Shown here in pieces: positions 60,593 to 62,992 of a DNA stretch of 64,000 nt (within the stretch, counting starts at the first letter, position 1; every line of letters starts with the position of its first letter). Origin of the DNA: an uncultured Bacteroidota bacterium (GTDB taxonomy: Bacteria > Bacteroidota > Bacteroidia > Chitinophagales > Chitinophagaceae); contig CAIOIZ010000011.1 in assembly GCA_903858475.1 (NCBI GenBank), forward strand, positions 1-64,000, given 5' to 3'. The notes beneath the pieces are model-generated. The model did not search any database, had not been told where the DNA came from, and worked only from the letters and a program-made list of their open reading frames with translations. Made by a program: the position numbers and the translations under genes.

Positions 60593-60628
60593 AGTCCCGG
60601 TTTTGTTAAAACCGGGACATTTTTTTTC
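60593..60628 (+). terminator. Intrinsic terminator after the TonB receptor
   Basis: GTCCCGGTTTT-GTT-AAAACCGGGAC + T tract. Confidence 0.9.
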
Positions 60629-60691
60629 AAATGCAGCAGCTAATACTTATTAATTGTCTATATTTATAGGGTAAACAAAAGTGCAAAATAT

Positions 60692-61273
60692 ATGACGGAA
60701 GAGCTATTATTAGCCGGATGTCTTAAAAATGATGCCGCCTCCCAAGAGGCACTCTATAAACGATTTAGCCCTCGGATGTTAGGGGTGTGTTACCGATTTG
60801 CAAAAAATAAAGAAGATGCAGAAGATATGTTGCAGGAGGGCTTTATTAAAGTCTTTACCCAAATACACCAATACAGAAGTGAAGGTGCATTGGAAGGCTG
60901 GATTAGAAGGATAATGGTACATACTTGTATTAATATCCTCAAGAAAAATAAAAAATTCTCTGACAGTGTAGATATTACTTATGCTCATTCTGTACATGTA
61001 AGGGAGGAAATGATTCCTTCTATCATGCAGGCCAAGCAGGTAGTGGAGAGTATTCGATTATTGCCATTGGGCTATCGTACCGTACTCAATCTTTATGCCA
61101 TTGAAGGATTTAGCCACCGCGAAATTGGCGAACTACTGGATATAGAAGAAAGTACCAGTCGCAGTCAATATACCAGGGCTAAAGCAATGTTGGAAGATAT
61201 TTTATTGAAGAAAAAAATAATTCAAAAATCTAAACCTAAGATTGCCATAGCATCTGCTTCGGCTATTTTATAA
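60692..61273 (+). CDS. ECF-type RNA polymerase sigma factor
   Basis: Region 2 (YKRFSPRMLGVCYRFAKNKEDAEDMLQEGFIKVF) and region 4 (LPLGYRTVLNLYAIEGFSHREIGELLDIEESTSRSQYTRAKAML). Confidence 0.93.
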   Translation: MTEELLLAGCLKNDAASQEALYKRFSPRMLGVCYRFAKNKEDAEDMLQEGFIKVFTQIHQYRSEGALEGWIRRIMVHTCINILKKNKKFSDSVDITYAHSVHVREEMIPSIMQAKQVVESIRLLPLGYRTVLNLYAIEGFSHREIGELLDIEESTSRSQYTRAKAMLEDILLKKKIIQKSKPKIAIASASAIL

Positions 61274-61333
61274 GTTTCTTATTTTGAATAATCCGAATAC
61301 CTCGTACCAAAAACTAAATGCTTAGCTTGAATC

Positions 61334-62890
61334 ATGGACAAGAATTATTATAGAGACGATTTTGAGGAGCTACTCCGAGAGAAGGCAGATGAATTTAAAT
61401 TACAGCCTACCAGAAGGGTATGGAAAAGTGTTTACAATAATATGCACCCTTCCCGCAGGTGGCCATCGAATGCCATTTCACTATTACTAATAGCTTCTTT
61501 ATTATTTATCGGATATTTCAATTCAAATCAATCCAATCAGGACCAAATTAAGCCACTATCCAAATTATCACCTACTGCTAACCAAAATGCTATTGTAGCA
61601 GACCTAAGAACAACATCAAATTCAAGCAGTTCAGTTAACAGCCTTGACAATCGCAGTAATGCTAAAAATAAATTAGTTGCCAATAATAATACTACTGATT
61701 TGCAAATTGCAGAAAATAGAACTCCCAATACTACCCAATCACAAAAGAATAATAATAAAAATAATATAGGCAACAATTCAATCACAAAATTTGTATCCAC
61801 GTTAACAGCAAAGTCAATCAGCAATAATGAAAAAGCGGATACAAAAAAAGCTATTACAAATGCTTCAAAATTAGTTTCTACTAATAAGGGGGCAATCATT
61901 CCAAGTAATAGCAATGAAGCGCAGTCTTCCACTAATGCAATTGAAAATGTTGAAATAAGCAGCAACAGTTCAGTTGAATCAACAATTAATTCATCTGCTA
62001 ACTCAAGTACTGCAATAGAAAACCAATTAGCTGCAACAGAAGTGCAATCGATACAATCCCCTTCCGCAGCCAATCTAACTACTATCAATGCAAGTCTGAC
62101 GAATAATGAGGATAAGGCTTGGATTGAAAATTTTGTTTTTTACAATAAAGGGAAAACGAAAAAATGGAAGGAAAAGATGGCTTATGAATTATATGTTACA
62201 CCCGGCATCAGCTATCGTACGCTAAATAGCAACATTAAATACAACAATAACCCTTCAGCAGGATTTGTAATGAATACCGAACCCACTGCCATTAATCAGA
62301 AACCTGAGTTCAGTGCAGAAATGGGAGCATCCATGATTTATTCATTTGCCAAAAAATTGAGATTGAAATTTGGCGGGCAGTTTAATTACAATAGTTATGC
62401 TATCAATGCCTACGAAACCAATCACCCTGTACTTACTACACTTACCTTAAATGACCTTAACTCGGGTTATCCCTATTTGATTTCGAGAAATACCCTTATT
62501 TCAAATATAGCAGGTATTGGTGCAGCGACATTTCACAATAAATCATTCCAAGTATCGCTTCCAATTGGACTTGAATACAAATTAGCTGGCAATAACAAAT
62601 TACAATGGTATGGCGCTGCTACTATTCAACCAACTTTTGTCGTAGCCGCAAAAGCCTATTTATTGTCCTCAGACAGGAAAAATTATGTGGCTGACAATTC
62701 CATGGTTAGAAATTGGAGCTTAAATACAGGATTTGAAACTTTTATTAGCTACCAAACCAAAGCAGGTGTGAGCTTACAAGTAGGTCCTCAATTTCGATAT
62801 CAAATACCTTCCACTTATGGGAAAAAATATAGTTTGGATGAAAAACTATTTAGTGCTGGTATGAAAATTGGAATTGTAAGAAATTTTTAA
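61334..62890 (+). CDS. Putative anti-sigma-like/outer-membrane-barrel chimera with Asn/Ser-rich linker
   Basis: N-terminal soluble segment, one TM (AISLLLIASLLFIGYF), ~190-aa N/S/T-rich linker, C-terminal beta-strand-rich domain ending GMKIGIVRNF. Confidence 0.65.
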   Translation: MDKNYYRDDFEELLREKADEFKLQPTRRVWKSVYNNMHPSRRWPSNAISLLLIASLLFIGYFNSNQSNQDQIKPLSKLSPTANQNAIVADLRTTSNSSSSVNSLDNRSNAKNKLVANNNTTDLQIAENRTPNTTQSQKNNNKNNIGNNSITKFVSTLTAKSISNNEKADTKKAITNASKLVSTNKGAIIPSNSNEAQSSTNAIENVEISSNSSVESTINSSANSSTAIENQLAATEVQSIQSPSAANLTTINASLTNNEDKAWIENFVFYNKGKTKKWKEKMAYELYVTPGISYRTLNSNIKYNNNPSAGFVMNTEPTAINQKPEFSAEMGASMIYSFAKKLRLKFGGQFNYNSYAINAYETNHPVLTTLTLNDLNSGYPYLISRNTLISNIAGIGAATFHNKSFQVSLPIGLEYKLAGNNKLQWYGAATIQPTFVVAAKAYLLSSDRKNYVADNSMVRNWSLNTGFETFISYQTKAGVSLQVGPQFRYQIPSTYGKKYSLDEKLFSAGMKIGIVRNF

Positions 62891-62925: not shown

Positions 62926-62960
62926 TAAAACCGCTGCCGATACAAAAGCCGCGGTTTTTG
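62926..62960 (+). terminator. Intrinsic terminator
   Basis: AAAACCGC-tgccgatacaaaagcc-GCGGTTTTTGTTTT. Confidence 0.65.
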
Positions 62961-62992
62961 TTTTACTGCCATTTCCCATTTAATTTTGATTT

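What the first reader, a model, noticed from the sequence alone, without database searches (positions are those of the whole stretch)
60692..62890. ECF sigma factor followed by a possible single-polypeptide trans-envelope regulator
The 518-aa product after the sigma factor starts with a ~45-aa soluble segment (DDFEELLREKADEFKLQPTRRVWKSVYNNM), then one TM helix and a ~190-aa Asn/Ser/Thr-rich linker. It ends with a C-terminal domain whose strand pattern resembles an OM barrel (YVTPGISYRTL...GGQFNYNSYAI...VSLPIGLEYKL...GPQFRYQIP). The layout suggests a cytoplasmic sigma-binding tail linked through the periplasm to an outer-membrane sensor. That would merge the anti-sigma and OM sensor roles usually split between FecR- and FecA-like proteins.
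Basis: partly seen in the sequence, partly recalled or inferred. Interest (0 to 1): 0.62.

Follow-up and report, generated by a model that had tools for sequence, protein, structure and literature searches.

The report
Two-membrane anti-sigma factor, Dma class

Summary
Window 60692-61273 encodes an ECF sigma factor and 61334-62890 a 518-aa protein with a 45-aa N-terminal segment, one TM helix (46-64), a disordered N/S/T-rich linker (67-256) and a C-terminal barrel. AlphaFold2 gives the barrel high confidence (read here as 8 strands); Foldseek's top matches are outer-membrane barrels. The genes are adjacent in 98 distinct loci, mostly in the order sigma - this gene - lipoprotein - uvrC across Chitinophagaceae. 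The ends are conserved and the linker is not (60% / 14% / 40% identity), unlike a signal peptide.

The idea is not new: it is the published "dual membrane-spanning anti-sigma" (Dma) architecture with an ECF21-type sigma. I recovered the Bacteroides das2-dma2 locus; the window's sigma and Das2 share a clade (97/97) excluding the other sampled ECFs. The Dma proteins share architecture, not detectable sequence similarity.

New here: a promoter signature GCAGC-N15/16-TTGTCTA before the sigma gene, nearly unique per genome, echoed as GCAGC-N15-GCGTCTA before Bacteroides das2, predicting autoregulation. Sigma binding and the signal remain inferred; the complex model was inconclusive. In passing: some related sigmas are paired with anti-sigma-like proteins ending in a type IX secretion signal.

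The parts
60594..60618 (+). terminator-like hairpin + T run, separates the upstream TonB receptor gene from the sigma transcription unit
   Evidence: 11-bp stem, T8; pattern match only
60633..60637 (+). GCAGC box, putative -35 of the sigma's own promoter
   Evidence: GCAGC 97-100% conserved per base among the 81 of 94 loci that carry the motif; nearly unique genome-wide
60654..60666 (+). TTGTCTATATTTA box, putative -10 (16 bases after GCAGC; starts 38 nt before the ATG)
   Evidence: Bacteroides das2 counterpart GCAGC-N15-GCGTCTA
60692..61273 (+). ECF sigma factor, 193 aa, in one clade with Das2 (ECF21 type)
   Evidence: Pfam; tree; alignments
61334..62890 (+). Dma-type anti-sigma factor, 518 aa
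61334..61468 (+). N-terminal cytoplasmic segment (aa 1-45), putative sigma-binding motif FEELLREKADEFKLQPTRRVWKSVYNNMHPSRRWPS, two helices
   Evidence: 60% mean pairwise identity in 29 orthologues; helices 9-20 and 27-36
61469..61525 (+). transmembrane helix (aa 46-64), probably not a cleaved signal peptide
61532..62101 (+). disordered Asn/Ser/Thr-rich periplasmic tether (aa 67-256)
   Evidence: pLDDT below 50; 14% identity; the region of residues 66-275 varies from 113 to 274 aa among orthologues
62159..62887 (+). C-terminal outer-membrane beta-barrel (aa 276-518), probably 8 strands, ends in F
   Evidence: 40% identity
62993..63565 (+). putative lipoprotein, conserved third gene of the locus; membership in the operon uncertain
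   Evidence: lipobox-like start MMKYILQFLLCTSIIAC

Best explanation
The two genes are a sigma / anti-sigma pair of the Das-Dma type. The 518-aa protein is inserted as a signal anchor with its first 45 residues in the cytoplasm; its disordered linker of about 190 residues crosses the periplasm and its C-terminal barrel sits in the outer membrane. The cytoplasmic motif holds the ECF sigma inactive. When the outer membrane or barrel assembly is disturbed, the anti-sigma is inactivated, most likely by stepwise proteolysis of linker and TM, and the sigma transcribes its own operon from the GCAGC-N16-TTGTCTA promoter. Shown here: sequence, predicted architecture, conservation, adjacency, clade membership of the sigma, promoter conservation. 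Inferred: sigma binding, topology in cells, autoregulation, the signal and the proteolysis.
For: Layout and barrel. Constraint on the two ends only. Adjacency in 98 loci, from small overlaps to 79-bp gaps, seven with 4-bp overlaps. Synteny. Sigma clade with Bacteroides Das2, 97/97, excluding ten other ECFs of the own genome and two outside ECFs. Das2 identified by the published operon content DUF4943-DUF4858-nitronate monooxygenase: against PMC13088901. Promoter motif: 61 of 94 loci with at least 11 of 12 matches against 0 in shuffles; usually one site per genome, mostly before the sigma; also before Bacteroides das2; a looser form before 20 of 30 ECF21-like sigmas against 0.36 in shuffles and 0 of 10 other ECFs. 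In B. theta, deleting dma2 raises das2 (log2FC 4.54; PMC13088901), as autoregulation predicts.
Against: The sigma + N-terminus model had pTM 0.33, so the interface is unsupported. Profile comparison with Bacteroides Dma2 gives no significant match (hhalign probability 2.4%); kinship rests on the sigma and on architecture. The second promoter box, TATATTTA, also resembles the housekeeping TAnnTTTG element of Bacteroidota (own knowledge), so the promoter may not be sigma-specific.
Confidence: 0.85

Rival explanations
1. The protein is an ordinary secreted outer-membrane barrel whose N-terminus is a long signal peptide, and its place after the sigma reflects regulation of it as a target gene.
For: One hydrophobic helix near the N-terminus and an OM barrel at the C-terminus are also what an exported OMP has.
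Against: The 45 residues before the helix are the best conserved part (60% against 31% for the helix), the helix is not followed by a common AxA site, and a similar W-containing motif recurs before the TM of the divergent partners of related sigmas. A disordered linker of about 190 aa is not needed in a simple OMP.
Confidence: 0.07
2. The pair is a FecI/FecR-like surface-signalling system with the neighbouring TonB-dependent receptor as sensor.
For: A TonB-dependent receptor gene lies directly upstream.
Against: The receptor is missing from many orthologous loci and only 36-66% identical in others; a terminator-like hairpin separates it; the 518-aa protein has no FecR domain, while the partner of another ECF in the same genome does.
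Confidence: 0.03
3. The sigma is controlled in some other way, and the Dma protein mainly acts as a structural link between outer and inner membrane.
For: The long tether joins both membranes; no signal is known; the strict motif occurs about once per genome, so the regulon may be only the operon itself.
Against: Strict pairing with the sigma and the genetics of Dma1 and Dma2 in B. theta (PMC13088901).
Confidence: 0.05

Closest known systems
Dma2/Das2 of Bacteroides thetaiotaomicron (BT_1558/BT_1559), Dma family (PMC13088901)
   Same: Sigma gene then a protein with N-terminal anti-sigma segment, one TM helix, disordered tether, C-terminal barrel; sigmas in one clade; promoter boxes GCAGC-N15/16-GTCTA shared with Bacteroides das2 loci.
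   Different: No detectable similarity between the Dma proteins; the two Bacteroides relatives recovered are 351 and 356 aa against 518; different third gene (lipoprotein without Pfam match here, DUF4943 there); genes downstream differ (uvrC here).
FecI/FecR/FecA surface signalling
   Same: ECF sigma controlled from the envelope.
   Different: One protein in place of FecR plus receptor; small barrel without plug; no FecR domain.
RseA/RsiW-type single-TM anti-sigma factors
   Same: Cytoplasmic N-terminus, one TM helix, periplasmic C-terminus (from own knowledge of these families).
   Different: Carries its own OM barrel; no Pfam anti-sigma domain found here.

Membership tests
Dma (dual membrane-spanning anti-sigma) | gene adjacent to an ECF21-type sigma | tested here: met
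   98 adjacent pairs; sigma in one clade with Das2, 97/97. The ECF21 label itself is from PMC13088901; the ECF Hub classifier was not available.
Dma (dual membrane-spanning anti-sigma) | N-terminal segment followed by one TM helix | tested here: met
   (prediction)
Dma (dual membrane-spanning anti-sigma) | long disordered tether | tested here: met
   (prediction)
Dma (dual membrane-spanning anti-sigma) | C-terminal beta-barrel | tested here: met
   (prediction)
Dma (dual membrane-spanning anti-sigma) | binds and inhibits the cognate sigma | tested here: inconclusive
   single-chain AF2 model of sigma + residues 1-46, pTM 0.33
Dma (dual membrane-spanning anti-sigma) | sequence homology to a characterised Dma | tested here: inconclusive
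   hhalign against the two recovered Dma2 relatives: probability 2.4%, E 0.019; the second profile has only 2 rows; no homology shown
Dma (dual membrane-spanning anti-sigma) | spans both membranes in cells; loss raises vesiculation | not testable with these tools
   needs fractionation and mutants
FecR anti-sigma / FecA receptor | FecR domain; TonB receptor in the same system | tested here: not met
   no FecR hit in the 518-aa protein; upstream receptor not conserved at the locus

The most novel reading that the evidence does not exclude
ECF21-type sigmas form a Bacteroidota-wide trans-envelope signalling module: a conserved autoregulatory promoter (GCARC-N15/16-NRTC) and a conserved anti-sigma motif + TM + tether, onto which different outer ends are attached, either an OM barrel (as here) or a type IX secretion sorting domain (often with a PKD domain), so that the sigma reports on OM assembly in one case and on the type IX secretion system in the other.
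Probability: 0.4. Interest if true: 0.7.

Novelty: new member of a known kind. Interest (0 to 1): 0.42.

Why it matters
It shows that the Dma architecture, known from gut Bacteroides vesiculation, is a core, syntenic locus of a large environmental family (found in 86 of 93 genomes searched of this genus), so its role is probably a general envelope function rather than a gut adaptation. The conserved promoter gives a simple readout of sigma activity and so makes the open question, what signal opens a Dma, testable.

Tried and rejected
Protein search of genome contigs with the single sequence found nothing; the alignment worked. PDB sequence search: no match. A phylum-sample profile search for the Dma protein finds only the same family, so the link to Bacteroides was made through DUF4943 (its Pfam accession recalled from memory and confirmed by the tool) and the sigma. 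A direct profile comparison with Dma2 failed. The sigma-anti-sigma fold, made by reading through the in-frame stops between the two genes with 32 paired orthologues, was low confidence. Rfam and tRNA scans of the window: nothing. Searching for a regulon with the strict promoter pattern gave mostly the operon itself; the few other sites showed no common target. Placing the upstream TonB receptor in the system was rejected. The PNAS 2024 Dma1 paper is not held, so statements on Dma1 come from PMC13088901.

Full report
Observation. The two ORFs are present as described. The first is an ECF sigma (Sigma70_r2 and r4_2). The second, 518 aa, matches nothing meaningful in Pfam, NCBIfam, PHROGs or PDB sequences.

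Conservation. The genome belongs to a genus whose named relatives are Ferruginibacter (inferred from the record titles). Orthologues occur in 86 of 93 genomes of the genus and in many other genera of the same family, and only in that family in a phylum sample searched by profile. The gene order sigma - Dma - lipoprotein - uvrC recurs in nearly all fetched loci long enough to show it, often with gpmI and a haem-binding-domain gene upstream. In 98 distinct loci the sigma and Dma genes are adjacent, from small overlaps to gaps of 79 bp, seven of them with 4-bp overlaps that suggest translational coupling.

Anatomy. In 29 orthologues mean pairwise identity is 60% for residues 1-45, 31% for the TM, 14% for the linker (113 to 274 residues) and 40% for the barrel. 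The linker is N 13%, S 11%, T 10%, with almost no Cys or Trp. AlphaFold2 gives helices 9-20 and 27-36, a TM helix 46-64, no structure at 67-256, and a barrel at 282-517 with pLDDT mostly 80-96. I read the strands as eight with four outer loops (inference from the element list), so both ends would face the periplasm. Foldseek's best matches are all outer-membrane barrels or proteins with one, among them OpcA, a porin of the Legionella Dot/Icm machine, EstA, OmpA, NspA, OmpX and OmpW. TM-scores over the full query are low because nearly half of it is disordered; normalised by the target they reach 0.62 for NspA.

Not a signal peptide. The soluble 45 residues are the most conserved part, the charge balance before the helix is positive, and no common AxA site follows it. 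Other partners of related sigmas carry a similar W-containing motif before their TM.

Membership. PMC13088901 defines Dma proteins by the same four parts next to an ECF21 sigma. Using DUF4943, the published neighbour of dma2, I found two loci with nadC - sigma - 351/356-aa protein - DUF4943 - DUF4858 - nitronate monooxygenase, matching the published operon content (nadC named from memory of the sequence, the domains of the first of the two loci checked by Pfam). Their sigmas and the window's sigma lie in one clade with support 97/97; ten other ECFs of the own genome and two outside ECFs lie outside it. The Dma proteins themselves are too divergent for a significant profile match. I therefore file the window protein as Dma by architecture and sigma partner, and state that homology of the anti-sigma itself is not shown. 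The same genome has two further pairs of this kind (L219, L221).

Promoter. Upstream of the sigma, GCAGC-N15/16-TTGTCTA(T)ATTTA is conserved; the second box usually starts 32-37 nt before the ATG (38 nt in the window). Of 94 loci, 61 match at least 11 of 12 bases against 0 in shuffles. A longer pattern occurs in 42 of 90 genomes of the genus, usually once and mostly at this place, with one reversed-pattern control hit, and in 64 of 150 genomes of the family against three control hits (sites outside the genus were not checked one by one). The two Bacteroides das2 loci have GCAGC-N15-GCGTCTA upstream. In 30 ECF21-like sigma loci from the class, GCARC-N13-17-NRTC occurs in 20 against 0.36 in shuffles, and in none of ten other ECFs of the own genome. 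The looser motif was defined after seeing these sequences, and loci are related, so the figures show strong enrichment, not exact probabilities. With the reported rise of das2 in the dma2 mutant this supports autoregulation; whether the motif was already predicted elsewhere I could not settle (one search found no relevant paper).

Mechanism. Sequestration of the sigma by the N-terminus and release on loss of the protein is inferred from Dma1/Dma2 genetics. The proteolysis step is inferred from other single-TM anti-sigmas (own knowledge). The signal is unknown; barrel assembly or outer-membrane stress is the most natural guess. The fold of sigma with the N-terminus was inconclusive.

Noticed in passing
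L310:2055-3173, L312:2092-3192, L313:341-1474, L317, L321, L325, L328, L330, L333: Nine of 30 partner genes of ECF21-like sigmas in the class encode the anti-sigma-like motif and a TM, then a CHU_C / type IX secretion sorting domain instead of a barrel, six of them with a PKD domain before it (the match of L321 is below the Pfam cut-off). An inner-membrane-anchored protein with such a signal would be unusual; no paper with these terms was found.
   Followed up: partly
L177, L321, L328, L330, L331, L332, L335: Some of these partner proteins appear to carry the N-terminal W motif twice in tandem.
   Followed up: no
L219:2800-4167:-, L221:3111-4427:+: Two more Dma-like pairs in the same genome: 456- and 439-aa proteins overlapping the end of their sigma genes, with a TM near residue 45-48 and weak OM-barrel matches.
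   Followed up: partly
G987:C17:11212-11733: An ECF21-like sigma domain lies in an 861-aa open frame, possibly a sigma fused to its regulator as reported for Dma3.
   Followed up: no
L228:2980-4065:-: In the same genome an ECF sigma gene is followed by a 362-aa protein with a trypsin-like peptidase domain after one TM helix.
   Followed up: no
window 62930-62965: An inverted repeat followed by T residues between the Dma gene and the lipoprotein gene could be a terminator, so the lipoprotein may be transcribed apart, perhaps with uvrC six bases after it (not called by the scan).
   Followed up: no
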